A DNA stretch of 64,000 nt from Streptomyces sp. TS71-3. Its GTDB lineage: Bacteria; Actinomycetota; Actinomycetes; Streptomycetales; Streptomycetaceae. Positions 20,753 through 38,588 of this stretch are shown one piece after another; the first letter of the stretch is position 1; every line of letters starts with the position of its first letter. Below the pieces are notes generated by a model, which ran no database searches, was not told the origin of the DNA, and worked only from the letters and a program-made list of their open reading frames with translations. The position numbers were made by a program, and so were the translations under genes. The stretch is taken from the NCBI RefSeq assembly GCF_018327685.1, contig NZ_BNEL01000003.1, forward strand, positions 1,426,001 through 1,490,000. The letters run 5' to 3'.

Positions 20753-21340
20753 TCACCTGTCCTTCAGGATCACCAGCTCACCCTTGCCGATCGGGGAGAG
20801 GGAGCTGAGGTAGCCCTCCGAGGCCTCGACCAGCTTGTTGAACTCCTCCAACTGGGGGGCATGGGAGGTGGCGTTGTCGACGACCATGACGCAGCCGTCC
20901 GCGAGGACCTGCTGCAACGAGGGCCACCAGCCGGCGTACTGCCCGCGATTGCTGTCGAGGAAGACGAAGTCGTACTCACCGGCACCGCGCGAGGCGAGGA
21001 ACCGGCCGGCCTCGTCCGTGATCTGCTGGATACGGGGGCCGAGGCCGGAGCGCTGGAAGTTCCGCTCGGCCATGGCGATCTTGCCGGGTGCCTGCTCGAC
21101 GGTCGTGACCGAGCCGCCGGGGCCCACGGCGTCGGCCAGCCACAGCGTGGAATAGCCGTTCGACGTCCCGATCTCCAGCACGTTCTTGCACTTGCATGCC
21201 TTGATGAGCAGCGCGAGGAACACGCCGGTGTCGTGCGTGATGTTCAGCATCTTCCGGCTCCGGTCGTCCGTCGCCGCGTCGTTGGTCTCACCGAATTCCT
21301 CCAACTCGCGCAGGAGCTCGATCAGAGCCGGTTCCATCAT
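20753..21340 (-). CDS. SAM-dependent O-methyltransferase (family 3, CCoAOMT-like)
   Basis: A 195-residue class I methyltransferase. The SAM motif VLEIGTSNGYSTLWLADAV, the acidic residue in TVEQAP and the metal/substrate motif FVFLDSNRGQYAGWW (with D in VVDNATSH) fit the small Mg-dependent O-methyltransferases. Two Met codons stand at 21340 and 21337 after AGGGG. It is the last gene of the long minus-strand operon, 29 bases after the TSUP transporter. It suggests that either the product or an intermediate is methylated. Acceptor unknown. Confidence 0.84.
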   Translation of the reverse strand: MMEPALIELLRELEEFGETNDAATDDRSRKMLNITHDTGVFLALLIKACKCKNVLEIGTSNGYSTLWLADAVGPGGSVTTVEQAPGKIAMAERNFQRSGLGPRIQQITDEAGRFLASRGAGEYDFVFLDSNRGQYAGWWPSLQQVLADGCVMVVDNATSHAPQLEEFNKLVEASEGYLSSLSPIGKGELVILKDR

Positions 21341-21369
21341 GCTTCCCCTCGTCGCGTCATGGCGCCTCG

Positions 21370-22140
21370 TCAGCCAGCCAGATTCTGCACCGTAATGTAC
21401 AACCCGAGCAGTAGCAGGGCCGCACAGAGCACCGTTCGGAACCTGTCCTCGGGTATCCCGCGGCGTATCCGATTTCCGATCGACATACCGAGGAATGCCG
21501 GGGCCAGGGAGAGGGCCGACATGACGAGGAGGTTCACGCTGAGCAGGTCCTGCGCCCGCAGCGACGAGGCAAGACCGACCGTCGACAGCGTGAAGAGGAT
21601 TCCCATGCTCTGCACCAGCTCGTCGCGGAGGAGCCCGATGGACTGCAGGTAGAAGACCCCCGGGACGGCCGAGGAGCCGGTCATTCCGGTGAGGAAGCCG
21701 TTGGTGGCTCCGAAGAGCACGCCCGTGGGGTGGTGGAACCACTTCCCCCGGATGTCGACCCGCAGCTTGAACAGCCCGAGCAGCCCGTACACGGCGAGCC
21801 CCACGCCGAGCAGGGACGACATCACGTCCGCCCGGAAAAAGCCCAGCGTGAGGATGCCCGACAGGGCGAACACCGTGGCCGCCAGGAGGAACGGCCACGT
21901 GAGCCTGGCGACTTTCCGGCCGTGGCCGCCGCGCAGAGCCTGGAGGATGTTCGTCAGGAACGTCGGGATGAGGATCAGCGCCTTCGCGGGCTGGATCCCG
22001 ATCGTCGCGGTGAGAATCCCCAGGACAACGGGCGGCAGCCCCAGACCGGTCAAACCCTTGAACAACCCACCCACGAAGAACGTCAGGGCGATCAGCGCGA
22101 AGGTGGTCAGGTGGAACGAGAACAGGTCGCTGCGGATCAC
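21370..22140 (-). CDS. TSUP (TauE/SafE)-family membrane transporter
   Basis: A 256-residue membrane protein with about eight helices. Two TSUP repeats are recognisable: GGLFKGLTGLGLPPVVLGIL near the start and FGATNGFLTGMTGSSAVPGV in the second half. The GTG start at 22140 overlaps the cupin stop (GTGA), so the two are co-translated. Members move sulfonates, sulfite or other organic anions. Here it could export a small acid or provide a sulfur source. Its substrate cannot be read from sequence. Confidence 0.83.
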   Translation of the reverse strand: MIRSDLFSFHLTTFALIALTFFVGGLFKGLTGLGLPPVVLGILTATIGIQPAKALILIPTFLTNILQALRGGHGRKVARLTWPFLLAATVFALSGILTLGFFRADVMSSLLGVGLAVYGLLGLFKLRVDIRGKWFHHPTGVLFGATNGFLTGMTGSSAVPGVFYLQSIGLLRDELVQSMGILFTLSTVGLASSLRAQDLLSVNLLVMSALSLAPAFLGMSIGNRIRRGIPEDRFRTVLCAALLLLGLYITVQNLAG

Positions 22141-22664
22141 TGGTGGACGGCGGCCTCCGGGTGCCCCGCCTCGATCCCGCGGGACACGAAGCACCGCAGT
22201 GCCTCCACCACGTCGGCCTGCTCCTGCGAGGTCAGCTCCTCGGGCCGCTCCTGCTCGAAGCGGTCGGCGAGCCCCAGGATGTCGTCCCTGCGGTTCTCGA
22301 TGTAGACGCTGGCGTCCGCCACATGCGTCGCCTGGTGGCCTTCGAACTGCTCGGCGAGCTCCTCGGCGGACGGCACGAAGTTGATGTCGAACGTGCCGAT
22401 CTGGAGAAGGACGTAGCGCGAGGGCGTCCCGACGGGGGCGCCGTTGACGAACCGGTGCCTGCTCGGGTTCGGCACCTGGAACACCTGCCCCGGATCGACG
22501 CTGAACGACTCGCCCGCGTCGGGGAGTTCGATCGTGATCCGGCCCCGCGAGCAGTACATCATGTCCGACACTTCCTTGTGGAAGTGATACGGGACGGCCT
22601 TGTGGTCGAGGTTGAACACGCTGACCCGCAGGCCGTCCTGGTAGTGGAACTCTTTCATTTCCAT
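22137..22664 (-). CDS. cupin-domain protein
   Basis: A 175-residue protein with one cupin barrel at about residues 10-100. The first motif PYHFHKEVSDMMYCSRGRI supplies His-x-His and Glu for a metal site; the second, VFQVPNPSRHRFVNG, supplies the last His. A helical tail (ENRRDDILGLADRFEQER) follows. Such a protein may be a dioxygenase, isomerase or sensor. It lies 3 bases after the FAD protein gene and overlaps the TSUP gene, so it belongs to the operon. Confidence 0.8.
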   Translation of the reverse strand: MEMKEFHYQDGLRVSVFNLDHKAVPYHFHKEVSDMMYCSRGRITIELPDAGESFSVDPGQVFQVPNPSRHRFVNGAPVGTPSRYVLLQIGTFDINFVPSAEELAEQFEGHQATHVADASVYIENRRDDILGLADRFEQERPEELTSQEQADVVEALRCFVSRGIEAGHPEAAVHQ

Positions 22665-22667
22665 TGC

Positions 22668-24485
22668 TCATCTCCCTGTTTCGGTACTGACCAGCCCGGG
22701 GCCGTCCCCGGCGACGGGCCGTTCACCGGCGGCCGTGACCGATTCGACCCAGTCGTCGGCCACCCGTTCCGCCGCCTCGACGAATGCGCCGGCGTAATTG
22801 CGTTCGTTCTGCCAGAACCTGACGGGCGCGCCGAAGGACGACAGATACGGTGACGGGACGCGCGCGCCATTCATCCGCTTCATCGCCCGATACCTTCCAT
22901 GGGCGTCGAGCGCTATTCCGCCCGTGGTGTATCCCCCCTCTTCGTGGGGGACGATCTCGCCCCGGCGCAGAAGGCTCTGCACGAACGCCGAGGGGTGGCG
23001 TTCCATCCGGAAATCCTGCGTCTTCGCGCGGACCACGCAGTCCGCTAGCAGAGTCGACGGTGCGCCGTCGGCGGACCGGTAGGCGACCTGGAACCGGCCG
23101 TCTTCGCCGACGTCGATGCCCGGCGCGTCGTAACCCTGCCGCACGGTCGTCAGGATGCCGGCGTCCATCAGGGCGAGGATCTTCTCCGCGTTCGCGGCCG
23201 GCATGGGTACGGCCGTGCGGATGAAGTGGGTGTCGAGCAGGCGGTCGTAGAGGGCCTTGTCGCTCGGTTCGAGCTGGTGGTAGAAGCGCATCCTGCGCGT
23301 CTTCAGCACGATCGTGTAGACGAGGTTGCCCTTGTAGGAGTCCTCCAGATCGCTCCGGAGCTTCTCCCCGGCGGAGCGGTAGCGGGGGTGCTCGACGTCG
23401 TGCCACCCCACCGCCCCGGCGGTCGCCCGGCGCAGGTCCTTGTCCAGGAGTTCCAGGATGGGCTCGATCCTCAGCTGACCGTGGTGCTCGCGCCGGATCG
23501 CGGCCAGGTTCTCCTCCGTGACGTGGTGCAGCTCGTAGTCGGCGAGCGGCCCCCGGACCGGAGGGAAGAACCCGGAGCGCGATCCGGCGACGATCCGCAG
23601 CGGCTCCCGGCCGGCGCCCGCCGCCGGCCGGTACGAGGCGACGTGGCCGTCGGGCGTGTACGCGAACTCGCCCTCGCCGGTGAGCGACATGATGGCGTCG
23701 ATGCCACTCGGGCCCATGCCCTGGACGAACACGCGGGGGCGCTCGCCGCGGGCACGCCGGGACCGGGCGCGGCCGGCGACGGCGAGCCCCAGCGCGTCCG
23801 GTGGATACGGCGACGCGATGTATCCACCGTGGCCCGAAAGCGCGTCGGTCTCCGTGGGCTTCCAGTGCCCGGTGCTCAGCAGGACGCGGTCGAAGCCCTC
23901 CACGGTGAACTCGCGCTGGGTGCCGAGCTCGCGGAGGCGTACGGAGAAGCCCCCCTCCGCCGCGTATCCGTCGAAGGCTTCGTGCCGGACGTACTGCCGG
24001 ACCTCGATGCCGTGCGCGCGGCACGTCTCGACGGTGTCCCGGAACCGGTCTTCGAGGTACAGGCCGAACAGCGCGCGCGGATAGAACTCGCCGTCCGCGG
24101 GCCGCCACTCGGCCAGCTCGATCCCGGGGTGTGTCTCCAGGACGAGTTCCGGGTGGTCCCTGATGAGCCGGGGTTTGCTCTCGGCCATCCAGTCGACGAA
24201 GTCGTTGCCATGGATGCCCATGGTGCTGGCCTCGTTGTTGCACCGGTGCCCGAGCTGGACGTTGTCCTTGGCGTAGGGGTATCCGGGGCCGTTCACCGAC
24301 CCCCGCTCCACCGTGGTGATCGAGATCGCCGAACGGGGGAGCGGGGGCTGCACCCGTGGATCCGTCAGCCTCCTGACCAGATGCCACAGCGCGCACGTAC
24401 CGGCGAAACCGGTACCGATGATGCAGAACCTCAGGGATCCCGGGGGATTGGCATTCAGGTCAGGACTCCAGACGGCTGAGGGCAT
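22668..24485 (-). CDS. large FAD/NAD(P)-binding oxidoreductase
   Basis: A 605-residue flavoprotein of the NAD_binding_9 type. The dinucleotide fold begins with FCIIGTGFAG (residues 20-29). Typical are NGPGYPYAKDNVQLGHRCNN, VLLSTGHWKP and FVQGMGPSGIDAIMSLTGEG, the last being a second glycine-rich fold. Proteins like this are often annotated FAD-NAD(P)-binding protein; characterised relatives are N-hydroxylating or other monooxygenases. The start overlaps the aminotransferase stop by 26 bases. It is a candidate for an oxidative step on the heterocycle. Confidence 0.78.
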   Translation of the reverse strand: MPSAVWSPDLNANPPGSLRFCIIGTGFAGTCALWHLVRRLTDPRVQPPLPRSAISITTVERGSVNGPGYPYAKDNVQLGHRCNNEASTMGIHGNDFVDWMAESKPRLIRDHPELVLETHPGIELAEWRPADGEFYPRALFGLYLEDRFRDTVETCRAHGIEVRQYVRHEAFDGYAAEGGFSVRLRELGTQREFTVEGFDRVLLSTGHWKPTETDALSGHGGYIASPYPPDALGLAVAGRARSRRARGERPRVFVQGMGPSGIDAIMSLTGEGEFAYTPDGHVASYRPAAGAGREPLRIVAGSRSGFFPPVRGPLADYELHHVTEENLAAIRREHHGQLRIEPILELLDKDLRRATAGAVGWHDVEHPRYRSAGEKLRSDLEDSYKGNLVYTIVLKTRRMRFYHQLEPSDKALYDRLLDTHFIRTAVPMPAANAEKILALMDAGILTTVRQGYDAPGIDVGEDGRFQVAYRSADGAPSTLLADCVVRAKTQDFRMERHPSAFVQSLLRRGEIVPHEEGGYTTGGIALDAHGRYRAMKRMNGARVPSPYLSSFGAPVRFWQNERNYAGAFVEAAERVADDWVESVTAAGERPVAGDGPGLVSTETGR

Positions 24486-25740
24486 CCCTGATGCGTATGC
24501 CGGCTTTGCTCAGGAGGGAACCGGTGCGGCCGCAGTTGATCCGCACGAAGTGGTCCAGGCGGTCGTCCTCGCCGAAGTGGTTGCCGCAGATCGTGGCGAC
24601 CTTCGCCTCCGCCAGCAGGAACTGGTCGGCGGTGACGTAGCCGTGCCGCTGGTAGGCGGCGGCGTAGGCCGAGAGGTCCACGAACAGGAAGTAGCCTCCC
24701 TGCGGCCGGCGGACCTGCAACGAGGGGACCGCTTCGAGCTCTCGCAGCATGGCCTCCAGGTTGGCGCGCGCGGTCCTCGCCCTGCCGGTGGCCACCTCGT
24801 CCATCTCCGGCCTCAGCGCGATGTGCGTGGAGACCTGGCCGTAGGTGGACGCGAACGACGTCAGGTTGACCTGGGCGCGTGCGGCCGCTTCCACGATGTC
24901 CGCCGGACCGCAGAGGTAGCCGATCCGATCGCCGTGCATGCCGTACGTCTTGCCCGGTCCGGTCACGGAGACCGTCCACGGCCGCATGGAGCAGTGGCCG
25001 CCGTCCGGGAGCGGGACGTCGATGGCCCCGAACGTCCTGGCCCGGGCGTCGAGGATGTGGGCCTCGTAGGGGCAGTCGAACAAGACGTGGATCGGGCTCT
25101 GCCCGCCGGCCTCGCGCCGCAGGTTGTGCCGGGCGATGACGAGGGCCAGCGCCGACAGCTCCTCGGTCGAGTAGATCTTGCCCGTCGGGTTGATGCAGTC
25201 GCCGAGGACGACGATCTTGGTTCGCTCCGAGATCGCCTCCTCCAGGGCCGGGGCCGTCAGCCCGTCGTCCGCCGTGACCAGGACGGTCTTCGGCGTGGCT
25301 TCGTGAAGCCTCACCATGTCCGGGTAGTGCGGCCAGTTGGGCACGGGGATCACGACCTCGTCGCCCGGATCCAGCAGTGCGTGGAAGGTCACCGAGATGG
25401 ACCCCTTCACACCGCCCGGCGTGACCATGATTTCGCTCTCCGGGTCGTACTCGATTCCGTGCAGGCGGGCCACGCGGGCCGCCACGGAATCCAGCAGGAA
25501 CGGAAATCCCTTGACCGGTGCGAAGGCGTGGATCGTGTTGGATTTCGTCTGGATGAACTCGATCACGCCCTGGTCGATCCGGGGATCGGTCGGCGTGTCC
25601 AGCGCACCGATGCTGAGGTCGATGATCTTGTCTTCCTCGGCGAGTCCACGATTGAGCGCGGCGAGCTTCGCCGCGGTTCCGTGGGTCGCTGATTCCGGAA
25701 TGCTCAGGACGGCGTTTGAGATGCCTCGAATTTTCTGCAC
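24460..25740 (-). CDS. class I/II PLP-dependent aminotransferase
   Basis: A 426-residue fold-type I aminotransferase. PLP contacts are visible: N184-P-T-G, D222 in VLFDCPYEAH, Schiff-base lysine K264 in VTGPGKTYGMHGDRIG, and the substrate carboxylate Arg near the end in VRINCGRTG. The fold suggests an aspartate- or alanine-type transaminase. It lies 34 bases downstream of the haem-oxygenase-fold gene and overlaps the FAD gene. In this setting it could make or remove an amino group on a glutamine-derived intermediate. Reaction not determined. Confidence 0.85.
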   Translation of the reverse strand: MQKIRGISNAVLSIPESATHGTAAKLAALNRGLAEEDKIIDLSIGALDTPTDPRIDQGVIEFIQTKSNTIHAFAPVKGFPFLLDSVAARVARLHGIEYDPESEIMVTPGGVKGSISVTFHALLDPGDEVVIPVPNWPHYPDMVRLHEATPKTVLVTADDGLTAPALEEAISERTKIVVLGDCINPTGKIYSTEELSALALVIARHNLRREAGGQSPIHVLFDCPYEAHILDARARTFGAIDVPLPDGGHCSMRPWTVSVTGPGKTYGMHGDRIGYLCGPADIVEAAARAQVNLTSFASTYGQVSTHIALRPEMDEVATGRARTARANLEAMLRELEAVPSLQVRRPQGGYFLFVDLSAYAAAYQRHGYVTADQFLLAEAKVATICGNHFGEDDRLDHFVRINCGRTGSLLSKAGIRIRDALSRLES

Positions 25741-25774
25741 GGTCGTACGGGCTGCCTCTCTGACGCTCCGGAAC

Positions 25775-26533
25775 TCAACTCGTGACGGCCTTGTGCATGG
25801 CGTTCCACATCTCGAGCTGGATGTTCAGGGTCTCCGTCGCGGCATAGGCGATCTCGGCGACGTCGGCGTCGGCGTGGCAGTTGTTCAGTACACACTTCTT
25901 CGCGTCGGCGGCGTGGCGCTCCTCGACGCCCTCGTCGCCCACGTGGACGTTGAAGTAGATCTCCACGTCGTCCACGAACCGGGCCTCGGGGAGTTCGTTG
26001 TTCGTGTTGCGGAAGGCCGTGCGGCAGACCTGGAGCATCCTGTCCGCGTGCGACTCCAGGGCCATCGCGACGCCGAGCATGCGGTGGTAGTTGGTGGTGA
26101 GCAGGCCGAGGGTCCGCTCCCGGTACGCCAGCGTCTCCGAGATGATCAGCTTGCTGTCCCGCGCGTCCCTGACGAGCAGCGGCGACAGGCCGAACTCGAC
26201 CTCGCCGTGCAGGTTGTGGGCGTTCTCCATCAGGATCTCGTGGCAGTGCGCGGCCACGCCGTTGCCCGTCTCCTCGTTGAGGATGTGGGAGAACAGGACC
26301 AGCGTGTCGCGGTCGTCGTGGGCCGCCGCCTGGGCGCACACGTGGGCGATGCCCTTGACCGTGCCCTCGGTCCGGTGGAAGAAGTTCGCCCGGTGGAAGT
26401 CGTAGGTCTCGCCGGTCCAGGGCGTCGACTCCAGGAGCTTGAAGTACTCGTTGTCGTAGACGGGGTGCCGGTCCAGGTCGTCGATGAGCGAGGTGACCTG
26501 GTCGTGAAGTGCGGTTGCGGTGCTTGTCGTCAT
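25775..26533 (-). CDS. haem-oxygenase-like iron-containing oxidase (HDO/TenA-like fold)
   Basis: A 252-residue all-helical protein of the iron-containing redox enzyme family. Candidate metal ligands follow the HDO pattern: E87/E88 with H96/H98 in NEETGNGVAAHCHE, E160/H162 in ALESHAD, and H197, E201/E204 and H207 in NVHVGDEGVEERH. HDO enzymes use a di-iron centre for N-oxygenation, C-C cleavage or similar four-electron steps. Such activity would suit ring contraction or heteroatom insertion in a C-nucleoside pathway. The start follows AGGAGTGG. Confidence 0.75.
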   Translation of the reverse strand: MTTSTATALHDQVTSLIDDLDRHPVYDNEYFKLLESTPWTGETYDFHRANFFHRTEGTVKGIAHVCAQAAAHDDRDTLVLFSHILNEETGNGVAAHCHEILMENAHNLHGEVEFGLSPLLVRDARDSKLIISETLAYRERTLGLLTTNYHRMLGVAMALESHADRMLQVCRTAFRNTNNELPEARFVDDVEIYFNVHVGDEGVEERHAADAKKCVLNNCHADADVAEIAYAATETLNIQLEMWNAMHKAVTS

Positions 26534-27072: not shown

Positions 27073-27109
27073 GGCCTCCTCACCGCCTCTCGGAACCGGT
27101 GAGGAGGCC
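27073..27109. terminator. hairpin terminator after the HemK-like methyltransferase
   Basis: GGCCTCCTCACC (27073-27084) pairs perfectly with GGTGAGGAGGCC (27098-27109) around a 13-base loop. It lies 22 bases past the methyltransferase stop and divides the cluster into an upstream NRPS operon and a downstream oxidase operon. Confidence 0.85.
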
Positions 27110-27130
27110 CCTGTGGCGCTCAGTTCCGGC

Positions 27131-27856
27131 TCACGACAACCGGTAGGCGGCGAAGTCCACCGGCACGTCGGCGACGGGTGCCGTGTGCTCCAGCACGACC
27201 TCGCGGTGGAACCCCGCCTCGTCGATGAGCTTCAGGAGGTAGTTCACGTCACCCATCGTGCTGAAGAAGATGATCATGCGCCCGTTCTCGGCGAGGTGCT
27301 CGCGGACCTGCTTGAAGAACGTCGTCAACGCGCCGTAGTTCTCGTCCGTCGTGGCCGAGTCGGCCACGTCGCGGGCGGCGAACCACTGGAACGGCGGGTT
27401 GAAGATGATCAGGTCGAACGTGCCCTCGACGGCGCTGAAGACATCGCTCTGGCGCACCTCGTAACGGTCGGCCACGCCGTTGCTCGCGGCGTTGGCCCGG
27501 GCGGCCTCGACCGCGTGCGGGTTGATGTCGACGGCGAACACCCTGGCGGCCCTGGTGGCGGCGAGGATGCCCAGGGACCCGCTTCCGGCGCCCATGTCCA
27601 GAACGCGGTCGCTCTCGGTGACCTCGGCGAGGATCTTCTTGCCGAGCATGTGGGAGACGGGGCAGGGGGTCATGACCTGGGAGGGGACCTTCAGCGTCAG
27701 ACCGTTGAAGGAGACGGTCTCCTCGCCGGCGGGCTCGCTGCCGTCACTGGCCAGGGTCCTGCGCAGTTCCAGGACCTGCCCGAGACGCTCGTCGGACATC
27801 AGCGGCCGGTGGTCGACGGCCGTGCCGAGGCCGCCCTGTGACTGGTTGTTTTCCAT
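27131..27856 (-). CDS. HemK/PrmC-like SAM methyltransferase
   Basis: A 241-residue class I methyltransferase. Motif I is VLDMGAGSGSLGI. The late motif IIFNPPFQW is an NPP-aromatic signature, as in HemK/PrmC enzymes (NPPY) and rRNA/DNA amino-methyltransferases, which methylate planar nitrogen. This hints at N-methylation of an amide or ring nitrogen rather than oxygen. The N-terminal recognition domain of PrmC is missing. The start at 27856 follows GGAGGAG. It lies 224 bases after the PRPP synthetase gene. Substrate unknown. Confidence 0.78.
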   Translation of the reverse strand: MENNQSQGGLGTAVDHRPLMSDERLGQVLELRRTLASDGSEPAGEETVSFNGLTLKVPSQVMTPCPVSHMLGKKILAEVTESDRVLDMGAGSGSLGILAATRAARVFAVDINPHAVEAARANAASNGVADRYEVRQSDVFSAVEGTFDLIIFNPPFQWFAARDVADSATTDENYGALTTFFKQVREHLAENGRMIIFFSTMGDVNYLLKLIDEAGFHREVVLEHTAPVADVPVDFAAYRLS

Positions 27857-28080: not shown

Positions 28081-29046
28081 TCAGGCGTGCCCGTCGAAGA
28101 GGCTGGTGACCGATCCGTCCTCGCAGACCTCCTGGATCGCCCGCGCCAGCAGGGGGGCGATGGACAGCACGGTCAGCTTGGGAAAGCGCTTCTCCTCGGG
28201 GATCGGCAGGGTGTTGGTGACGATCACCTCGCACGCCGCGCAGGTCGACAGGCGCTCGGCGGCGGGGTCGGACAGGATGCCGTGCGTGGAGGCGATGACC
28301 ACGTCAGCGGCGCCCTCGGCCAGCAGGGCCTCGGTGGCCTTCACGATCGTGCCGCCGGTGTCGATCATGTCGTCGATCAGCACGCAGAGCCGGCCGCGCA
28401 CCGTGCCGACGACGCGGTTCGCGACGGCCTCGTTGGGCCTGTCGGGGTCGCGGGTCTTGTGGATGAAGGCGATCGGCCGGCCGCCCAGGTGGCCGGCCCA
28501 CTTCTCGGCCAGCTTGGTCCGCCCGGAGTCGGGGGAGACCACGGTGATGTCGGCGCCGCCGCCGTACTTGTCGTTCACGTACTCGGCCAGCATGTTCTGC
28601 GCGAGCAGGTGGTCGACCGGGCCGTCGAAGAAGCCCTGGATCTGGGCGGTGTGCAGGTCGACCGTCATGACCCGGTTCGCGCCCGCCGTCCTGAACAGGT
28701 CGGCGATGAGCCGGGCCGAGATCGGCTCCCGGCCCCGGTGCTTCTTGTCCTGCCGGGAGTAGGGGTAGAACGGCATGATCACGGTGATCCGCCTGGCGCT
28801 GGCGCGTTTGAGCGTGTCCACCATGATCAGTTGTTCCATGAGCCACTTGTTGATCGGCGTGCAGTGGCTCTGGAGGACGAACGCGTCACTGCCGCGCACC
28901 GACTCCTCGAACCGGACGAAGATCTCACCGTTCGCGAAGTCGTACACCGACTGCGGGGTGAGCGGGACGTCCACGTGCTTGGCGACCTGCTCGGCCAGCT
29001 CGGGGTGACTGCGCCCGGCGAACAGCATGACGTTCTTCGCGTCCAT
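28081..29046 (-). CDS. prs: ribose-phosphate pyrophosphokinase, cluster copy
   Basis: A 321-residue PRPP synthetase, which converts ribose 5-phosphate plus ATP to PRPP. Clear motifs: FANGEIFVRFEESVRG, the ATP-binding flexible loop YPYSRQDKKHRGREPIS, TVDLHTAQIQGFF, VSPDSGR and the PRPP loop LIDDMIDTGGT. The ATG is coupled to the glycosidase-like gene before it by a TGATG overlap. A housekeeping copy is expected elsewhere, so this copy probably feeds or balances the ribose phosphate pool of the pathway, or protects against product interference. Confidence 0.92.
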   Translation of the reverse strand: MDAKNVMLFAGRSHPELAEQVAKHVDVPLTPQSVYDFANGEIFVRFEESVRGSDAFVLQSHCTPINKWLMEQLIMVDTLKRASARRITVIMPFYPYSRQDKKHRGREPISARLIADLFRTAGANRVMTVDLHTAQIQGFFDGPVDHLLAQNMLAEYVNDKYGGGADITVVSPDSGRTKLAEKWAGHLGGRPIAFIHKTRDPDRPNEAVANRVVGTVRGRLCVLIDDMIDTGGTIVKATEALLAEGAADVVIASTHGILSDPAAERLSTCAACEVIVTNTLPIPEEKRFPKLTVLSIAPLLARAIQEVCEDGSVTSLFDGHA

Positions 29047-30008
29047 CAGCCTCGCACCTTCCTGCGGTACGCGGCGTGTGCCGCGGCGAGCCGCCCGCCG
29101 ACCCCGGCCGTGCTGATCAGGACGGCCATGTTGGCCCTGGCCGACCGCCCCTCCGTGGCCGCGTCCACCGCGCGCATGAGGTACTTCGTGATCGCCTGCC
29201 CCCGGATGCCGTCCCGCTCCGCGGCGGCCATGGCCTCGGTGATGGCGGCGTCGACCTCGTCGCTGTCGATCGCCTCCTCGGGCCGGACCGGCGTCGTGAT
29301 CAGGAACGAGCTGTCGTTGCCCAGCGCCCAGTGGTTCTCTATGGAACGGGCGATCACCTCGTCGTCGTCCAGCCGCATCGGGCTGCGGAAACCGCTGGTG
29401 GTGCAGTAGAACGCGGGGAAGTCGTCGGACCGGTACGAGACCACCGGCACGCACTGGGTCTCCAGGTACTCCAGCGTCAGGCCGAGGTCGAGGATCTTCT
29501 TCGCGCCGGCGCACACCACCGCGACCCTGGAGCGCGTGAACTGGATGAGGTCGGAGGAGACGTCCATGGTCTTCTCCGCGCCCCGGTGCACACCGCCGAT
29601 TCCGGCCGAGGAGAAGAACGGGATGCCCGCGAGCTCGGCCGCCACCACCGAGGAGGCGACCGTCAGCGCGCCCATCCGGCCCTGGGCCAGGACGATCGGC
29701 ATGTCCCTGCTGCTGACCTTGGGGATGCCCGGCGTCGAGGCGAACCGCTCGATGTCGGCGTCGGTCATGCCGACCACGATCCTGCCGCCGTCGACGGCGA
29801 TCGTGGCCGGGACGGAACCGCCCGCCCGGACGGCATCCTCGACCTTCCGCGCGGTCGCGGCGTTCTCCGGGTAGGGCAGTCCGTGGGTGATGACGTTGGA
29901 CTCCAGCGCCACCACCGGACGGCCCTCGTGGAGCGCGTCGGCCACCTCGGCGCTGAAGGCGAGCGGAATGTTCTCGTGGGGAAGCGAGGTCATGGTCGTC
30001 ACCGCCAT
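29046..30008 (-). CDS. pseudouridine-5'-phosphate glycosidase family protein, probable C-nucleoside synthase
   Basis: A 320-residue PsuG-family protein. In E. coli PsuG cleaves pseudouridine 5'-phosphate reversibly; in antibiotic clusters (IndA, AlnA, SdmA, MinB) relatives run in the C-C bond-forming direction with ribose 5-phosphate. All residues equivalent to the catalytic E31, K93, D149 and K166 of E. coli are present: E36 ([12 protein letters not shown]), K97 (PKVSSRD), D153 (DVSSDL), K170 (CAGAKK). The base-pocket loops differ: GALTV for GATTV and FSSAGIGG for FATGGIGG, fitting a non-uracil heterocycle. Coupled on both sides by TGATG overlaps to the NRPS and PRPP synthetase genes. Confidence 0.88.
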
Positions 30009-30247: not shown

Positions 30248-33200
30248 GATCGTTTCCTTCCGGATGTCCAGGCGGCGACGGATGGCCGTCGCGAGCTCGT
30301 CGATGTCCGGCGCCTTGAGCATGGAGTAGTGATCGGCCTGAAGTTCCAGAACGGTCGGTGGCGAGGCCGCATAGCCGCTGCTGCCGTCCAGGAACGAGTA
30401 GTCGTCTCCCCGGGCCTTGAAGATGGTGATGGGGGCGGTGATCCGCCGCTCGGTCAGCTCGCGGAAGGTGTAGCTGAACTCGAACGTCGTCCCCACGACC
30501 GCGATGATCCGGCGCACCAGGTCGATGTCGAGGTTCGGGATGCTCTCGCTGACGAAGGCGGCGAAGGTCTCGTCGTCCTCCGCGGCGGCGAGGCACTTCT
30601 CCAGTAGGGGACCGCTGATCGCGCCGGAGAAGACGGAGAAGAGGATCGTCACGTACGCCTTGTTGGCGTAGGAGGCGACGCGGTCCTGCCCGCCGGCCGA
30701 GCGGACCTTGGGCGAGCCGGGGGCGATCAGGAAGACGTGGTCGACCTTCTCACCCGCCTGTTCGAGCTGGTACGCGGCCTCGAAGGCCACGCGCGCCCCG
30801 AAGGAGTAGCCCCACAGGGTGTACGGGCCCTCCGGCTGGAGCTGCTTGATGGCCTTGACGTCCTCGGCCGCCATCTCCCTGATCGTCGGGTACGGAGCCT
30901 CACCCTCGTTGATGCCGTGTGCCTGCACACCGAAGAACGGCCGGTCCGTGCCCATCTTCGCGGCCAGCAGCCGCAGGTTCATGGTGTAGCCGCCGAGACC
31001 GGGCCAGCAGTAGACCGGCTTCTGCGGCCCCTCGGGCTGGAGGGGGACCAGCCGGGAGGACTGCTGGTCGTCCGCCCCGTCCACCCGCCGGGCCAGCTTC
31101 TCGATCGTCGGGGACTCGAACAGCACCTGAAGCGGCAGCGACGCCTCGAACTCCCGGTTGATCTTGTTGATCAGCCCGACCGCGATCAGCGAGTTGCCTC
31201 CGGAGGCGAAGAAGTCGTCCTGCACCGAGACGGCCTCCCGCTTCATCGCCTTCTTCCAGTGCTCGGCGATGCGGCGCTCGACGTGGGTGCGGGGCGCGAT
31301 GAAGGGGCGGTCGCCGCTGTCCACGCCGGTCCTGTCGGAGGCGGCGAGCGCCTTGACGTCGATCTTGCCGTTGGCGGTCGTCGGCAGCGCGTCGAGGATC
31401 ACGACCTTGTTGGGGATCATGTAGTCCGGAAGGAAGTTGATCAGGTCGTCACGGATGATCTCCGCCGGGCCGCGCATGTGCACGACGTCTTCCTTCATGC
31501 CCTCGTGCAGCCGCTGCTCGTCGCTCACCCGGCCGCCGACGAAGAAGTACGACGGACCGGTGGCCCGGCCGAGCCCGCTGAGGATGCCGTCGATCCGCCG
31601 GTGCGAGGGGAGGTCGTCGCCCGTCCTGGAGCTGTACCCGGACGACATGAACCCGAGGTTCACGTCGTTCATCGACAGCTTCTGGAGCCCCCGGCCGAGG
31701 TCTATGTACCGGCGCCAGTCCTCGGTGGTCCGGCTGATGACCGAGATCCCGATGCTCGCCCGGTCGTACACCGCCTGGTTGATGGCGATGACCTGCTTGC
31801 GCAGGACCAGGTCGGACGAGATCGGCTCCAGCTCCCCGCCCGCGTAGGCGTACTGCCCTGCCGGCAGGTCGGCGACCTTTCCCGGATGGGCCTGGACGTA
31901 CACGTCGACGGCGTCGTCCATGCGCGGGCCCGCGTAGGGCACCCACGCGAAGGTGCCGAGGTAGTAGTCCTCCTCGGCGACGTCCAGCCTGTCCTTGACG
32001 GACGGCGCGAACTCCGCGCCGGCGATGTCGAGGCCGTACGCCGGCAGTATCTCCTCCAGCAGGCCCACCATGTGGCCGGTCTCGATCTCCAGCACTTCCT
32101 GGATGTTGTTCTTGTAGACCGGCTCGATCGCCCGCTTCTTGCCGAGGAAGTGCAGCTTCACCCCGGGCTCGGCCGCGCCGGCCGTCTCCGTGATCAGCAC
32201 CAGCTCGTGCTCGACCGGGTGGTAGTAGTAGATGCCGGGCCGGGTGTCGCCGATGCCGGTGATCTCCAGGTACACCTGCGTGGCGTACAGGGAGCCCGGC
32301 GACGCGTAGCCGTACTTCGGCAGCAGCCGCTCCGGGCTCAGGTGCTGCCCGAAGAAGCGCAGGATCTCGCCGAACTCGTCGAAGCCGACCTCGGCCAGGT
32401 TCCGCGAGCCGGTCCCCGCGACCCGCCGTTCGAGCAGCCGGAGGACGTCGGCCTTGGTGACCTCCCCGCCCTCGTAGAACCGGTAGGTCTTGCGCGCGAA
32501 CGCCTGCCGCCGCTGCTTCTCGGTGGCCGTCCTGCCCGGCAGCGTGATCACGGTCCTGCCGTCCAGCTCGTCGGCGTCGCGCACGCCCGCGTTCGACAGC
32601 TGCGCCTTGACCTGGAGCTTGCTCTCCTTGGACTGGTGGTGCGCGCCGTGGTTGCCCTGGTCCATCAGGGCGGCTTCCCGCGGGTTCAGCTCCACGCAGG
32701 CGATCAGGTTCTGGAAGCCGGTGCGGCCGTCCTTCTTGACGATCACCGCGGCGTGCTTGACCCATTCGTGCGTCTCGATCGCCAGCCGGATCTCGTCCAG
32801 CTCGACGCGGAAGCCGCGCAGCTTCACCTGGTTGTCAGCCCGGCCGACGAACTGGACGGTGCCGTCGGCGTTCCAGTGCGCGAGGTCGCCGGTCCTGAAG
32901 AGCTTCCCCCTGCCGAACGGGTTGTCCACGAACCGCTGCGCCGTCAGCTCCGGCTTGTTCAGGTAACCGCGCGCCAGCTGGACCCCGCCGATGTACAGCT
33001 CGCCGATCTCGCCGACGGCCACCCTGGACCGCTCGGCGTCGAGAACGTGGTACTCGGTGTCGTGCACCGGGGCGCCGATCGAGATCGAGTTGGGGCCCTC
33101 GCCGACGGCTGCCCGGTTCACGGTGATCGCGGAGGAGTTGATCGTGCACTCCGTCGGCCCGTAGAGGTTGACCAGGTCGCACCACGGCAGGGTGTCGAGG

Positions 33201-34051
33201 CACTCCTGGGCGAGCGGCCTCGACAGCGCCTCGCCGCCGGTGAAGATCTGCGTGAGCGACTTGCACGACTGGAGCTCGGCCGTGTCCAGCAGCGCCTGGA
33301 GCAGGGTGGGAACGCACTGCAACGTGGTGACACCGTGCTTCCTGATGGTGTCGATCAGCCGCTCGGCGTCACGGTAGATCCCCGGGGTGCCCATCACGAC
33401 CACCGCTCCGCACGCGGGCGCGAGGATCTCCCACTGCGCCGCGTCGAAGCTCATGGGCGTCTTCTGGAGCACGGTCTTCTCGCTGTCCAGGCCGTAGGTC
33501 ACCGCGAGCCAGTGCATCTGGCTGACGATGCTGCGGTGCTCGATCATCACGCCCTTCGGCTTGCCGGTGCTGCCGGAGGTGTAGATGACGTACGCCAGGT
33601 TGTACGCGGCCGGGCGGGTGGTGGCCGGGGTGAAGCCCCGGGCGTCCTCCAGCGTGACGATCGCGGTGCCCACGGGGGCGAGCGCGGCCAGCCGGTCCGC
33701 CAGCTCCGCCTGGGTGACGATGACCTTCGTACCGGAGTCCTCGATCATGTAGCGCAGGCGCTCTTCGGGGTACTCCGGCGACAGCGGCAGGTAGGCACCG
33801 CCCGCGAAGAGGATTCCCCATGCACCGATCATGAGGTCCACGGACGGCTCGACGAACAGCCCGACGCTGCCGTCGGCCGCCACGCCGAGCTGCTCCAGGC
33901 ACCCCGACAGCTCGGAGCCGCGCCGGACCAGCTCGCGGTAGGTCAGGTGCTCGCCGCCGTAGATGACGGCCGTGTCGTCCGGCCGCTGTCGTGCTTCTTC
34001 CCGGAGTAAGTCGGGAAGGGTGGTCTCCGGCGAGGGTTTCAGCCTCGCCAT
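30008..34051 (-). CDS. single-module NRPS, indigoidine-synthetase type (A-Ox-PCP-TE) with C-terminal tautomerase
   Basis: A 1347-residue NRPS like BpsA/IndC. Adenylation domain about 20-505 and 850-905 (A3 [10 protein letters not shown] at 158-167, YGPTE at 297-301, A10 TANGKID at 892-898) is split by an FMN oxidase domain about 510-840. PCP follows at about 920-990 (S954 in GGNSL), then thioesterase about 1010-1255 (S1083 in GYSFG, H1241). BpsA-type enzymes activate glutamine, oxidise and cyclise it to a six-membered diketopiperidine. Residues 1269-1347 are an in-frame PptA-like tautomerase, not part of BpsA. Codon 15 is TTA. The ATG lies about 12 bases after GGGGGAGAAG. Confidence 0.9.
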
Positions 34052-34404: not shown

Positions 34405-35085
34405 TCACTCCAGAGAGGTCATCGCGAAGCCCTGCCGCAGGGCGGTGGCGATCTCGACCATCCTCCGGGTCTGGTAGGCGATCGCGGCCAGGTTGTCCTC
34501 GGTGACGTTCTCCGCCAGCCGTCCGGGGATCGCCTGCCGGCCGGAGACCGAGCTCACCCCGTACGGGTTGCCGTTGCTGGGCGCCGTCTGGATGTCGTCG
34601 GTGATGCCCGGCGGCACGATGATCGCGCCCCAGTGGTAGAAGACGTTGTTCAGCGACAGGATCGTGGCCTCCTGGCCGCCGTGCGGGGCGCCGGTCGAGG
34701 TGAACGACGACATGACCTTGTTGGCCAGCCCGCGGCGCGCGTTCAGCGGCCAGGCCAGGTCGATGAAGTGCTTGAGCGGCGCGGCGATGAGGCCGAACCG
34801 CCCCGGTGCTCCCAGCAGGACCACGTCCGCCCAGTCGAGGTCGTCGATGCCGGCCGTCGGCACGTCCTTCATCGCCTCGGCGTTCTCCGACCAGGCCTCG
34901 GTCCATTCGGTGAACTCGGGTGCCAGCGACTCGTTGACGTACTCGGGCACCCGGCGCAGGCGCGCCTGCGCCCCGGCCTTCTCGGCCGCCTCGGCCGCGG
35001 CCGTCGCGAGCTTGTGGATGTTGCCGGTTCCGGAGTAGTAGACGATGGCGACTCTGGTGACGCTGGTGGGGCCGGCGGTTGACAT
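34405..35085 (-). CDS. flavodoxin-like NAD(P)H:quinone oxidoreductase (WrbA type)
   Basis: A 226-residue flavodoxin-fold protein. The FMN phosphate loop is VAIVYYSGTGNIHKLA; LLGAPGRFGLIAAPLKHFID and FTSTGAPHGGQEATILSL match WrbA/NQO-type reductases. It could reduce quinone-like or maleimide-like intermediates, or recycle flavin for the oxidase domain. The start at 35085 follows AAGGAGC. The 309 bases between it and the UPRTase gene (35086-35394) hold no gene. Confidence 0.86.
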   Translation of the reverse strand: MSTAGPTSVTRVAIVYYSGTGNIHKLATAAAEAAEKAGAQARLRRVPEYVNESLAPEFTEWTEAWSENAEAMKDVPTAGIDDLDWADVVLLGAPGRFGLIAAPLKHFIDLAWPLNARRGLANKVMSSFTSTGAPHGGQEATILSLNNVFYHWGAIIVPPGITDDIQTAPSNGNPYGVSSVSGRQAIPGRLAENVTEDNLAAIAYQTRRMVEIATALRQGFAMTSLE

Positions 35086-36066: not shown

Positions 36067-36071
36067 CGCGT

Positions 36072-36764
36072 TCACCTCTGCTGGGTCTCGGCGGCCAAGC
36101 GGGCGAAGGCCCTGCGGGACTCCGTGACGAACGTGCGCACCTTCAGCCGGTCCTTGCGGCCCGTGGCGTCCTCCAGGCCGGTGTGGGCGTCCACGGCGGC
36201 CGGGCGGACCTGCTCGATCGCGTCGGCGACGTTCTGCGGGTTCAGCCCGCCCGCCAGCATCAGCGGCCGCGGTGAGATCCGCACCAGCTCGGCGCTGATG
36301 TCCCAGTCGTGCACCAGGCCCGTGGCGCCCTTGGCGCCGGTCGCGGGGTTGAAGCTGTCGGTGATGAACATGTCGACATGCTCGGCGGAGTCATCGACGA
36401 TCTTGGCCAGCTCGTCGGTGTTGTCCGCCTTCACCACGAGGCTCTTGAGGACGTAGAGGTCCGGGGCGATGGTCCGCAGCTTGCGCAGCTGGGCGGGGAC
36501 CACGTCACCGTGCAGCTGGATGGCGCCGACGCCCATCTCGGCGCAGAAGTCCCTGATCTCGTCGGCGTCGGTCAGGTAGGTGATGATGACGCCCTTGTGC
36601 TCCGGCTGGATCGCCCTGACGATCGCGGCCGCGTCCTTCTCGGAGAGGTCCTCGTTCTTCGCGGGGAGCCGCAGCGCGAACCCGAGCCAGTCGGCGCCCT
36701 CCTCGATGATCATGTCGGCTTCGGCCTGGTCGATGATTCCCGCGACCTGGATCAAACCCTGCAT
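36072..36764 (-). CDS. TrpF-like (beta/alpha)8 barrel lacking the catalytic cysteine
   Basis: A 230-residue phosphoribosylanthranilate isomerase-like protein. The phosphate-binding end (LMLAGGLNPQNVADAIEQ, AAVDAHTGLED) and the Asp position (MFITDSFNP) match TrpF, which runs an Amadori rearrangement. The N-terminal strand, however, reads IQVAGI where TrpF has K-x-C-G-I, so the general-base Cys is Ala. Loss of this residue argues against ordinary tryptophan synthesis and for a changed reaction on a ribosyl intermediate. The start at 36764 follows GGGAG. Confidence 0.82.
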   Translation of the reverse strand: MQGLIQVAGIIDQAEADMIIEEGADWLGFALRLPAKNEDLSEKDAAAIVRAIQPEHKGVIITYLTDADEIRDFCAEMGVGAIQLHGDVVPAQLRKLRTIAPDLYVLKSLVVKADNTDELAKIVDDSAEHVDMFITDSFNPATGAKGATGLVHDWDISAELVRISPRPLMLAGGLNPQNVADAIEQVRPAAVDAHTGLEDATGRKDRLKVRTFVTESRRAFARLAAETQQR

Positions 36765-36949
36765 GGTGATCTCCCTTTGCCGGCGGCCGTTCACGACGGC
36801 CGTCCGTGATGGATCCGGACCGCACGGGAATGTCCGGAGGCATCACCGTGCGGAACTGCTGACATCAGCGAAAGTTGATGCGGAAAGAGGAGGGGCGCCC
36901 ACCGGCGGGCAGCGTGGTTCGCACCCCGTGCCAGCGACGCGAGCCGCTG

Positions 36950-37630
36950 TCAGGCGTTCTTCAGTGTGTCGACGACGAGCCGTGCCACCGGCGCCGCCGA
37001 CGCGGGGTTCTGGCCCGTGATGACCCGGCCGTCGGCCTCGGTGTGGGAGACGTAGTTCCCCGCCTTGGTGTGCCGCGCGCCGCGTTCCTTCAGCCGGTCC
37101 TCCAGGAGGAACGGCATGATCTCGACGAACCCGAGGGACGCCTCCTCCTCGTTGGTGAAGGACGCCACCCGCTTTCCGTCTATCAGGTAGGAACCGTCGG
37201 ACAGGCGGAGATTGACGAGGCCGGCGGGGCCGTGGCAGACGGCGGAGACCACGCCTCCGCGTTCGTAGATGCCGATGGCGAGCCGGGCGAGGTCGGGCGA
37301 CTCCGGAAAGTCCCACATGGCGCCGTGCCCGCCGACGTAGAAGATGGCCTCGTAGTCGGCCGAGTGCACCTGGGAGGCCGGCTGCGTCGCCACGAGCTTC
37401 GCCTTCACGGTCTCGTCGGCGAGGAAGCCGACGATCTCCGGGTCGTTCTCCTCGCCGTCGAACACCACGGCCGGCGGCTCGCCGCCCAGCACGGACACGA
37501 AGTCCACGTCGTAGCCCGCGGCCGTGAAGACGTTGTACGGGTGGGCGGCCTCCGAAACGCTGTAGCCCGTCCTGTTGCCGGTGTCGCCGAGAACATCATG
37601 ACTGCTGACTGCGAGCAGTACCTTGGCCAC
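36950..37630 (-). CDS. DJ-1/PfpI family protein (Hsp31/glyoxalase III-like)
   Basis: A 226-residue class I glutamine amidotransferase-fold protein. The nucleophile elbow is SAVCHGPAG (C132, H133); FYVGGHGAMWDFPES and ITGQNPASAAPVARLV are typical of the Hsp31-like branch. Relatives are glyoxalases, isonitrile hydratases or cofactor-free hydrolases; some antibiotic clusters use them for ring hydration. It stands alone between gaps of 178 and 185 bases. It could protect against reactive carbonyls or modify the heterocycle. The exact role is open. Confidence 0.84.
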   Translation of the reverse strand: MAKVLLAVSSHDVLGDTGNRTGYSVSEAAHPYNVFTAAGYDVDFVSVLGGEPPAVVFDGEENDPEIVGFLADETVKAKLVATQPASQVHSADYEAIFYVGGHGAMWDFPESPDLARLAIGIYERGGVVSAVCHGPAGLVNLRLSDGSYLIDGKRVASFTNEEEASLGFVEIMPFLLEDRLKERGARHTKAGNYVSHTEADGRVITGQNPASAAPVARLVVDTLKNA

Positions 37631-37808
37631 TTCTCCTCCTGGTGTGTCGTGAATTCAGCCGGCCATGGACCTCGTGGCCGCCGGGCCCCGGTCGATCGCT
37701 CGGGAGTGGATGTCCGGGGTTTTCGTGGGCGCGGCCGGTGACGGTGTGATGGCCGGGGAAGGGGCCGCGCCCACGGTGTGGCACAGGGGGTCGGGTTGTG
37801 GGCGTGCG

Positions 37809-38588
37809 TCAGGGCTTGTGGATGAAGGTGGTGATGGTGTCGACGAGCTCGGTCGGCTTCTCGACGAGGACCATGTGACCGGAGTCGAATTCGCGGTAGG
37901 TGGCGTTCGGTATGGCGGCGGCGAGCTCGCGGGAGTGGTGGGTGGGCACGGCGGCGTCGGGGTTGCAGCCGATGACGAGGCTCTCGGCCTCGACCTTGCC
38001 GGCGAGGTCGCGGATGTCGGTGCGCACGAGGAGTTCGAGCTGGCGGATGCGTCCGCTGGAGGGGCTCAGCTCGGCGCCCATCTCGTCGATCTGCTCAAGG
38101 CTGTCGAGGGTGTTGATGAAGCGGGGGCTGAAGGCGGTGGTGGTCAGCACACGGCCGAAGGCCAGGGCGTCGTGCTTCTGGCTGAGGGTCAGGCCGATGA
38201 GGTTCTCCATGTAGCGGTCGGTCTGCACCAGGCCGCCGATGGGGACCAGGCGGCGGACCTGCTCGGGGTGCAGACCGGCGGTGGCCGCCACGACCGCGCC
38301 GCCCAGGGAGAAGCCGACCAGATCGACCGGACCCCTGCCGGCGTCGGTGATGATGGCGGAGACCTCGTCGGCGAGCTGCTCCATGGTCAGGTCGCTGCCG
38401 TCGTCCTCGGCGGCCTCGCTGCCGGACAGGTCGGGCAGGATGACCGTGTTGCGCCGGGCGAACTGCTCCAGCAGGTGCCCGAAGGCTGCCTGCCCGCCCT
38501 TGCCCACACCGTGCACCAGCATCAGGGCCGGACCCGACCCGGTCACCGTGTACTTCACCCGCGAGGTTCCCACAGTCACCGTAGGCAT
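37809..38588 (-). CDS. alpha/beta-fold hydrolase, right-flank copy
   Basis: A 259-residue hydrolase: oxyanion-hole region MLVHGVGKGG, nucleophile elbow GFSLGG (S94), acid region CNPDAAVP and catalytic His in FDSGHMVLVEKP. It is the outermost intact gene of the cluster on this side and part of the flanking duplication: its C-terminus is found again, as a remnant, at 16402-16509. The original flank unit therefore contained a hydrolase at each end. It may be a tailoring esterase or an unrelated gene of the flank unit. Confidence 0.84.
   Translation of the reverse strand: MPTVTVGTSRVKYTVTGSGPALMLVHGVGKGGQAAFGHLLEQFARRNTVILPDLSGSEAAEDDGSDLTMEQLADEVSAIITDAGRGPVDLVGFSLGGAVVAATAGLHPEQVRRLVPIGGLVQTDRYMENLIGLTLSQKHDALAFGRVLTTTAFSPRFINTLDSLEQIDEMGAELSPSSGRIRQLELLVRTDIRDLAGKVEAESLVIGCNPDAAVPTHHSRELAAAIPNATYREFDSGHMVLVEKPTELVDTITTFIHKP

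What the first reader, a model, noticed from the sequence alone, without database searches (positions are those of the whole stretch)
20753..38588. Candidate C-nucleoside antibiotic cluster built on an indigoidine-type NRPS and a PsuG homologue
A-Ox-PCP-TE NRPSs cyclise glutamine, and PsuG-family enzymes join such heterocycles to ribose 5-phosphate in the showdomycin, minimycin/oxazinomycin and indigoidine pathways. Here the two genes are translationally coupled to each other and to a PRPP synthetase. Two methyltransferases, an HDO-fold oxidase, an aminotransferase and a FAD enzyme imply extra tailoring beyond indigoidine. No HAD phosphatase of the IndB type was found, so the dephosphorylation step is unaccounted for. 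The overall gene set resembles what is reported for showdomycin, but I cannot confirm identity.
Basis: partly seen in the sequence, partly recalled or inferred. Interest (0 to 1): 0.8.

Follow-up and report, generated by a model that had tools for sequence, protein, structure and literature searches.

The report
TrpF-branch C-nucleoside cluster beside second operon
This Streptomyces region holds a gene cluster that probably turns glutamine and ribose phosphate into an unusual carbon-linked nucleoside or a related pigment, lying next to a separate small operon; an altered tryptophan-pathway enzyme sits where related clusters carry a phosphatase.

Summary
The genes are real, but the region is two units. 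Unit A (27131-38588, plus 16602-20445) has hydrolase, DJ-1, TrpF-like, UPRT, WrbA-like, NRPS, PsuG, PRPP-synthetase, methyltransferase and efflux genes. Unit B (20753-26533: HDO, aminotransferase, FAD, cupin, TauE, O-methyltransferase) lies between two strong hairpins and occurs alone in other Streptomyces.

A is not built like showdomycin, which uses dissociated NRPS proteins. It is nearer minimycin but lacks MinC (HAD phosphatase + DUF4243). It belongs to a branch, also on C. aurimucosum and A. vitis plasmids, where a TrpF-like protein accompanies UPRT, NRPS, tautomerase and PsuG. Of 54 NRPS+PsuG loci, 35 have TrpF-like, 18 HAD, none both. The TrpF-like protein has Ala for TrpF's catalytic Cys (129/129) and Glu/Asp for an Arg (130/130) but keeps the acid Asp.

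The NRPS-fused tautomerase keeps its own start codon and Shine-Dalgarno sequence in 26 of 29 fused genes (six-base matches 21/26, controls 26/1541): probably a nested gene exposing the catalytic proline.

Best reading: a new variant pathway to a Gln-derived, probably N-methylated C-nucleoside. The product is unknown; a pigment is not excluded.

The parts
37809..38588 (-). Unit A: alpha/beta hydrolase (ABH)
   Evidence: Pfam Abhydrolase_1 E=3e-19; in 9 of 9 unit-A loci
36950..37630 (-). Unit A: DJ-1/PfpI protein
   Evidence: Pfam E=3.6e-11; 9 of 9 unit-A loci
36072..36764 (-). Unit A: TrpF-like protein, catalytic Cys replaced by Ala8, Arg36 position by Glu38, acid Asp136 kept
   Evidence: Pfam PRAI E=5e-23; PDB TrpF alignment; 130-row alignment; AF2 pLDDT 93.9 with eight strands alternating with helices
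35395..36066 (-). Unit A: uracil phosphoribosyltransferase homologue (MinD-like)
   Evidence: Pfam UPRTase E=3e-73
34405..35085 (-). Unit A: WrbA/flavodoxin-like FMN protein
   Evidence: Pfam FMN_red 51 bits; NCBIfam quinone oxidoreductase 129.5 bits, below its cut-off of 141; 8 of 9 unit-A loci
30008..34051 (-). Unit A: NRPS A-Ox-T-TE-Tau, pocket DAWQFGLIN
   Evidence: Pfam; motifs
30008..30247 (-). Nested tautomerase gene inside the NRPS frame: AAGGA (30259-30255), ATG 30247, then Pro
29046..30008 (-). Unit A: PsuG-type C-glycosynthase
28081..29046 (-). Unit A: PRPP synthetase, third copy in the genome
   Evidence: PRK03092, 575 bits, cut-off 438; other copies 63% and 41%
27131..27856 (-). 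Unit A: HemK/MTS-type methyltransferase with NPPF motif
   Evidence: NPPF in 6 of 6 unit-A homologues
27073..27109 (.). 13-bp perfect hairpin between units A and B
   Evidence: -41.7 kcal/mol for 27060-27125, z -4.5; not in the T-run terminator list
25775..26533 (-). Unit B: haem-oxygenase-like di-iron oxidase family protein
24460..25740 (-). Unit B: class I/II aminotransferase
   Evidence: HDO-aminotransferase fusion P0281 elsewhere
22668..24485 (-). Unit B: FAD-NAD(P)-binding protein (NAD_binding_9)
   Evidence: no PDB relative by sequence
22137..22664 (-). Unit B: cupin-like protein
   Evidence: 22.0 bits, below cut-off 27.2; conserved in unit-B loci
21370..22140 (-). Unit B: TauE/SafE exporter
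20753..21340 (-). Unit B: O-methyltransferase (Methyltransf_3)
20679..20730 (.). 24-bp-arm hairpin between unit B and the MFS gene
   Evidence: -68.9 kcal/mol minus strand, z -6.1; -62.7 plus strand, z -6.8
19228..20445 (+). Unit A: MFS efflux protein
   Evidence: 8 of 9 unit-A loci
18005..18952 (+). Unit A: EamA transporter
   Evidence: 8 of 9 unit-A loci
17366..17890 (-). MarR-family regulator, probably of unit A
   Evidence: MarR also beside TrpF-like cassettes L126-L130, L132, L133 and on pET44827
16602..17246 (+). Unit A: Rv2466c-like mycothiol-dependent nitroreductase
   Evidence: 293 bits; 8 of 9 unit-A loci

Best explanation
Unit A makes a glutamine-derived C-nucleoside (or its 5'-phosphate) by a TrpF-like branch of the minimycin/indigoidine pathway. 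Proposed order: the NRPS loads L-Gln, cyclises and oxidises it to an aminopyridine-dione; a tautomerase, partly translated on its own from a start nested in the NRPS gene, gives the nucleophilic tautomer; PsuG joins its carbon to ribose 5-phosphate; the TrpF-like barrel, which keeps a phosphosugar fold and the general acid but not the base, then acts on the phosphoribosyl compound (my guess: acid-assisted furanose opening/closing such as anomer or ring-form change, without TrpF's C2' proton abstraction) in place of the HAD/DUF4243 steps of minimycin; the WrbA-like, DJ-1 and hydrolase proteins modify it and the NPPF methyltransferase N-methylates the exocyclic amine. UPRT and PRPP synthetase most likely raise UMP for self-protection, as published for minimycin; EamA, MFS and the mycothiol enzyme export or detoxify. 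Unit B is a separate operon. Shown: gene content, domains, motifs, conservation, exclusivity pattern, conserved nested start. Inferred: every reaction, their order and the product.
For: Domains and coupling. Same set in 9 loci of Streptomyces, Saccharothrix, Microbispora, Actinokineospora, Jidongwangia, Actinosynnema, Actinophytocola: DJ-1 9/9, hydrolase 9/9, WrbA-like 8/9, EamA 8/9, Rv2466c-like 8/9, MFS 8/9, methyltransferase 6/9, PRPP synthetase 6/9. TrpF-like 35, HAD 18, both 0, neither 1 of 54 NRPS+PsuG loci; 24 of the 35 came from the NRPS-seeded search, so are not chosen for TrpF-like; two further HAD-type loci lack TrpF-like. PRPP synthetase 19/35 against 0/18, DUF4243 0/35 against 12/18. 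TrpF-like residues; a trp-operon TrpF keeps Cys and Arg. Nested start: 26/29 fused genes, SD>=4 26/26, >=5 24/26, >=6 21/26; controls 240, 87 and 26 of 1541; in a variable linker only positions -4/-3, which encode the SD, are conserved. NPPF 6/6; S. naganishii adds SAM synthetase and MTHFR genes, i.e. methyl supply. Minimycin logic and UPRT role: PMC8724604 section 6, read.
Against: No chemistry is known for any TrpF-like member; a C. aurimucosum cassette of this kind is credited with a black pigment (PMC2830990, passages). The exclusivity needs only 3 label changes on the PsuG tree, so the Fisher P of 2e-13 overstates it. Any of 11 HAD-like places elsewhere in the genome (best 33%) could dephosphorylate the product, and a Questin_oxidase (DUF4243) hit lies about 0.8 Mb away. 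The methyltransferase is in only 6 of 9 unit-A loci. Fused genes in the nested-start count include near relatives (eight Microbispora/Sphaerimonospora loci); L011, L056 and L070 lack the start and SD. The HDO structure could not be predicted and no fold search could be run.
Confidence: 0.6

Rival explanations
1. The product is a pigment: indigoidine or a ribosylated, methylated indigoidine-type dye, with PsuG and TrpF-like making it soluble.
For: A. TrpF-like/UPRT/NRPS/tautomerase/PsuG/EamA is the gene set of plasmid pET44827, held responsible for black pigment (PMC2830990, passages). S. lavendulae pSA3239 has the same branch (L028, H2/H3), and a paper on a blue-pigment gene in strain CCM 3239 is cited (reference title only). 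The NRPS alone can make indigoidine (passage, PMC3992020).
Against: Dedicated UPRT, PRPP synthetase, efflux genes and mycothiol enzyme suggest a toxic nucleoside rather than a pigment; the unit-A extras (DJ-1, hydrolase, WrbA-like) are absent from pET44827.
Confidence: 0.22
2. Units A and B are one pathway: B makes an oxidised amino-acid building block that is attached to the A nucleoside.
For: A and B adjoin in the window and in S. naganishii in different orders; in S. griseosporeus the HDO and TrpF-like hits both have a longest contig of 108018 bases. Co-occurrence in 392 Streptomyces: 2 of 3 A genomes also have B (P=0.0014 with the window, 0.041 without).
Against: Six-gene B stands without A-type genes in the 20-kb stretches of four Streptomyces (L106-L109); 7 of 9 A loci show no HDO in the fetched flanks (flanks 10 kb or less); hairpins separate the units; the window HDO groups with that of a stand-alone B (100/99).
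Confidence: 0.12
3. It makes a known C-nucleoside, minimycin or showdomycin.
For: Shares NRPS with tautomerase, PsuG and UPRT with minimycin; a trpF lies near the showdomycin cluster.
Against: No HAD or DUF4243 in the window; single NRPS instead of dissociated proteins; different tailoring genes.
Confidence: 0.04

Closest known systems
TrpF-like/UPRT/NRPS/tautomerase/PsuG cassette of C. aurimucosum plasmid pET44827 (NC_010813.1) and A. vitis plasmid pAvCG78a (NZ_CP056049.1)
   Same: TrpF-like (50% and 57%), UPRT, NRPS, tautomerase, PsuG, EamA in one cassette, MarR beside it on pET44827; same Ala and Asp/Glu replacements; no minimycin-type HAD or DUF4243 hit
   Different: Tautomerase separate; no DJ-1, hydrolase, WrbA-like, PRPP synthetase or methyltransferase homologue found; A. 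vitis has an alkene reductase instead. A KdsC-type phosphatase is annotated on pET44827 about 8 kb from the TrpF-like gene, outside the cassette
Minimycin (oxazinomycin) cluster, S. hygroscopicus JCM 4712
   Same: MinA is A-Ox-T-TE-Tau, MinB PsuG-like, MinD UPRT (PMC8724604 section 6)
   Different: No MinC (HAD + DUF4243); TrpF-like, PRPP synthetase, DJ-1, hydrolase, WrbA-like and methyltransferase instead
Indigoidine clusters (indA/indB/indC)
   Same: NRPS and PsuG-like IndA, EamA-type transporter, phosphoribosyltransferase (passage of PMC3992020)
   Different: No IndB-type HAD; TrpF-like and further tailoring genes
Showdomycin cluster, S. showdoensis ATCC 15227
   Same: PsuG-like C-glycosynthase; glutamine-derived ring
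   Different: Dissociated NRPS proteins and phosphatase SdmB there (passages of PMC8724604); the original papers were not held
TrpF (phosphoribosylanthranilate isomerase)
   Same: Fold and general-acid Asp, up to 76 bits to PDB TrpF
   Different: Catalytic Cys and Arg36 replaced in the whole branch

Membership tests
Minimycin-type cluster | NRPS A-Ox-T-TE-Tau | tested here: met
   Pfam A, PP, TE; tautomerase 19.8 bits (cut-off 22), but 57-63% identical to the tautomerase end of L034-L036 and L039
Minimycin-type cluster | PsuG-like C-glycosynthase | tested here: met
Minimycin-type cluster | UPRT (MinD) | tested here: met
   71-74% to UPRT of L034-L036
Minimycin-type cluster | MinC: HAD phosphatase + DUF4243 | tested here: not met
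   no hit in the 64 kb window at E<=1e-5
Minimycin-type cluster | Product minimycin | not testable with these tools
   no metabolite data
Showdomycin-type cluster | Dissociated NRPS proteins | tested here: not met
   one 1347-aa NRPS; definition from passages of PMC8724604
Showdomycin-type cluster | HAD phosphatase SdmB | tested here: not met
   (query was the L015 HAD, not SdmB itself)
Indigoidine cluster (indABC) | IndB-type HAD | tested here: not met
Indigoidine cluster (indABC) | Blue pigment from the NRPS | not testable with these tools
   needs expression
TrpF-like/UPRT/NRPS/Tau/PsuG branch | All five genes in one locus | tested here: met
   window and 34 further loci have TrpF-like with NRPS+PsuG and UPRT; tautomerase; pET44827 and A. 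vitis
TrpF-like/UPRT/NRPS/Tau/PsuG branch | Ala for Cys7 and Glu/Asp for Arg36 of T. maritima TrpF | tested here: met
   129/129 and 130/130
TrpF (PRA isomerase) | Catalytic Cys and Asp | tested here: not met
   Cys replaced by Ala, Asp kept; roles of the residues recalled
HDO family (unit B) | Haem-oxygenase-like fold with di-iron ligands | tested here: inconclusive

The most novel reading that the evidence does not exclude
A TrpF-derived barrel that lost its catalytic base has been recruited, in a horizontally spread NRPS-PsuG cassette, to a new step on a C-nucleotide in place of the phosphatase/DUF4243 route; and these clusters make their tautomerase twice from one gene, as an NRPS domain and, by nested initiation, as a free enzyme with the N-terminal proline its chemistry needs.
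Probability: 0.35. Interest if true: 0.75.

Novelty: new variant of a known kind. Interest (0 to 1): 0.58.

Why it matters
C-nucleoside antibiotics are few and their enzymology is useful. The TrpF-like branch is the larger of the two groups in my sample yet has no assigned chemistry that I found. It gives a ready enzyme question: what does a TrpF barrel without its base do to a C-nucleotide? The nested start offers a testable answer to why some indigoidine-type NRPSs carry a fused tautomerase and others a separate one, although the enzyme class is described as needing an N-terminal proline. Splitting the region into two units keeps metabolite work from chasing wrong tailoring steps.

Tried and rejected
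Rejected: one 18-kb pathway (unit B occurs alone). Rejected: showdomycin relationship as framed. Considered: a larger ORF at 30008-35338; the NRPS start is taken as 34051 from the SD-like upstream and the relatives. Considered: that L008 or L013 carry a MinC downstream of PsuG; Pfam shows a pectate-lyase-like protein and a histidine kinase. Led nowhere: PDB sequence relatives of the HDO and FAD proteins; a class-wide HDO search found only the own genome, 1 of 394; a search of 150 relatives of S. naganishii gave 2, both known already; T-run terminator and sigma-70 scans were not above shuffles, 4 found against 6.0 expected and 1 against 0.9, so the hairpins are strong structures, not proven terminators. 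A first count of fused tautomerases used too lax a rule and is replaced. The independence of the two A+B junctions is unsettled: the concatenated A tree pairs the window with S. naganishii (96.3/95), the PsuG tree pairs S. naganishii with L050 (98/85), and S. naganishii's HDO was missed by the script for the HDO tree; it is 94% identical to P0031, which sits in another clade than the window's.

Literature: searches. No paper in those listings described a nested start for the NRPS-fused tautomerase; PMC12766979 (one passage) discusses fused and discrete tautomerases as excision or fusion. The original minimycin and showdomycin papers were not held, so this is not a claim that it is unpublished. 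PMC9832568 was seen in passages; PMC13405713 gave no hit for the terms tried.

Full report
What is there. The window lies in a 9.79-Mb genome, contig C3, whose kin in the searches are Streptomyces. All genes named in the finding were found on the minus strand, open and with high third-position GC. NRPS/PsuG and PsuG/PRPP-synthetase junctions are TGATG overlaps. Further genes not in the finding: UPRT, a TrpF-like protein, a WrbA-like flavoprotein, a cupin, a TauE exporter, a tautomerase fused to the NRPS end, and, on the plus strand at 16602-20445, an Rv2466c-like enzyme, EamA and MFS, with a MarR gene between them.

Two units. An NRPS-seeded scan kept the best 80 of 230 relatives. Nine non-redundant loci, the window included, share unit A: DJ-1 9/9, hydrolase 9/9, WrbA-like 8/9, EamA 8/9, Rv2466c-like 8/9, MFS 8/9, methyltransferase 6/9, PRPP synthetase 6/9; HDO is seen in 2 of the 9, with flanks of 10 kb or less for most. 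The HDO gene is in 9 of 392 sampled Streptomyces, own genome included. Unit B is flanked by a 13-bp and a 24-bp-arm hairpin, though a T-run terminator scan was not above chance. Overlap is unlikely by chance with the window counted (P=0.0014) and weak without it (0.041). So B may travel with A, but is a unit of its own. A protein elsewhere fuses HDO and aminotransferase (P0281), so these two probably act together.

Which branch. Of 92 loci examined, 54 have NRPS and PsuG: 35 with TrpF-like, 18 with a minimycin-type HAD, none with both, one (L033) with neither. 24 of the 35 were found through the NRPS; the other 11 are the window and loci found through the TrpF-like protein. PRPP synthetase is in 19/35 against 0/18, DUF4243 in 0/35 against 12/18, UPRT in 35/35 against 15/18, EamA in 26/35 against 4/18. 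On the PsuG tree the labels need 3 changes at least, so this is a few events, not 54. L034 carries HAD and DUF4243 fused, L015 as two genes, as in the published MinC (PMC8724604 section 6). Plasmid records show the same TrpF-like cassette in C. aurimucosum and A. vitis; the first is credited with a black pigment (PMC2830990, passages).

The TrpF-like protein. Against T. maritima TrpF the catalytic Cys7 position is Ala in 129 of 129 aligned rows, Arg36 is Glu or Asp in 130 of 130, the acid Asp126 is kept in 130 of 130 (117 of the 120 listed of 987 hits, plus the window and 12 loci). Both plasmid cassettes agree; a TrpF inside an archaeal trp operon keeps Cys and Arg; three other distant PF00697-type proteins differ variously. 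The residue roles are recalled. A prediction from 34 sequences gives pLDDT 93.9 with eight strands alternating with helices. I infer a barrel that can protonate and open a phosphoribosyl ring but not carry out the Amadori step. What it acts on is unknown.

The nested tautomerase. 4-OT enzymes are described as using an N-terminal proline (PMC5818174, passages), which a fused domain cannot have. In 29 loci the tautomerase is in one frame with the NRPS; the codon before its proline is ATG, GTG or TTG in 26, and each of these 26 has a Shine-Dalgarno match of at least 4 bases at a fitting distance; 24 have at least 5 and 21 at least 6, against 240, 87 and 26 of 1541 other in-frame start codons of the same genes. 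Start codons are 4.3% of codons there. In the variable linker only the two residues encoding the SD stand out (Lys 18 and Gln 6 of 31, then Glu 25 of 31). Two new fused loci also keep a start codon, one with AAGGAG, one with a weaker AAAGG. L011, L056 and L070 have lost start and SD together. The counts include close relatives, so independent lineages are fewer, about six by my reading. In the window the site is ATG 30247 with AAGGA at 30259-30255.

How it works, and the product. From the minimycin scheme and the indigoidine enzymology (abstract of PMC10989907, which puts cyclisation before oxidation), glutamine becomes an aminopyridine-dione that PsuG joins to ribose 5-phosphate. The NPPF motif (6/6 homologues) is, from general knowledge, typical of methyltransferases acting on nitrogen next to a flat ring or amide; S. 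naganishii adds SAM synthetase, MTHFR and a PfkB kinase, and other unit-A loci have some of these. So N-methylation of the amine is my prediction. UPRT is published as self-protection in minimycin. Dephosphorylation may be done by unlinked HAD proteins (11 weak hits in the genome) or may not occur.

Verdict. New variant of a known kind: a TrpF-branch relative of minimycin/indigoidine clusters with its own tailoring set. A C-nucleoside is most likely, a pigment possible. The showdomycin comparison and the single-pathway reading are not supported.

Noticed in passing
window 30247-30259 (minus strand): Nested start codon and Shine-Dalgarno sequence for the tautomerase inside the NRPS gene, conserved in 26 of 29 fused genes.
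   Followed up: yes
P0281 (protein): Fusion of HDO and aminotransferase outside Streptomyces-type loci, suggesting the two enzymes of unit B act together.
   Followed up: partly
L005 16849-20003: S. naganishii carries SAM synthetase, a PfkB-family kinase and methylenetetrahydrofolate reductase genes inside the cluster, a possible methyl-supply set.
   Followed up: partly
L175 8821-17627 (A. vitis plasmid pAvCG78a): The whole TrpF-like/UPRT/EamA/NRPS/tautomerase/PsuG/alkene reductase cassette on a plasmid of a Gram-negative plant-associated bacterium, beside an IS3 transposase.
   Followed up: no
L172 and L173 (G719, G416): Distant HAD-type clusters (NRPS 40-41%) in 3.6-3.7-Mb genomes of another family, with MarR, PsuG, HAD, UPRT, EamA and NRPS but no tautomerase hit.
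   Followed up: no
L126, L128-L130, L132, L133 and other Streptomyces loci: A third layout of the TrpF-like branch with an old-yellow-enzyme homologue and PRPP synthetase after PsuG.
   Followed up: no
window 20606-20637: Short tandem 8-base repeats (CGGCACAG) between unit B and the MFS gene.
   Followed up: no
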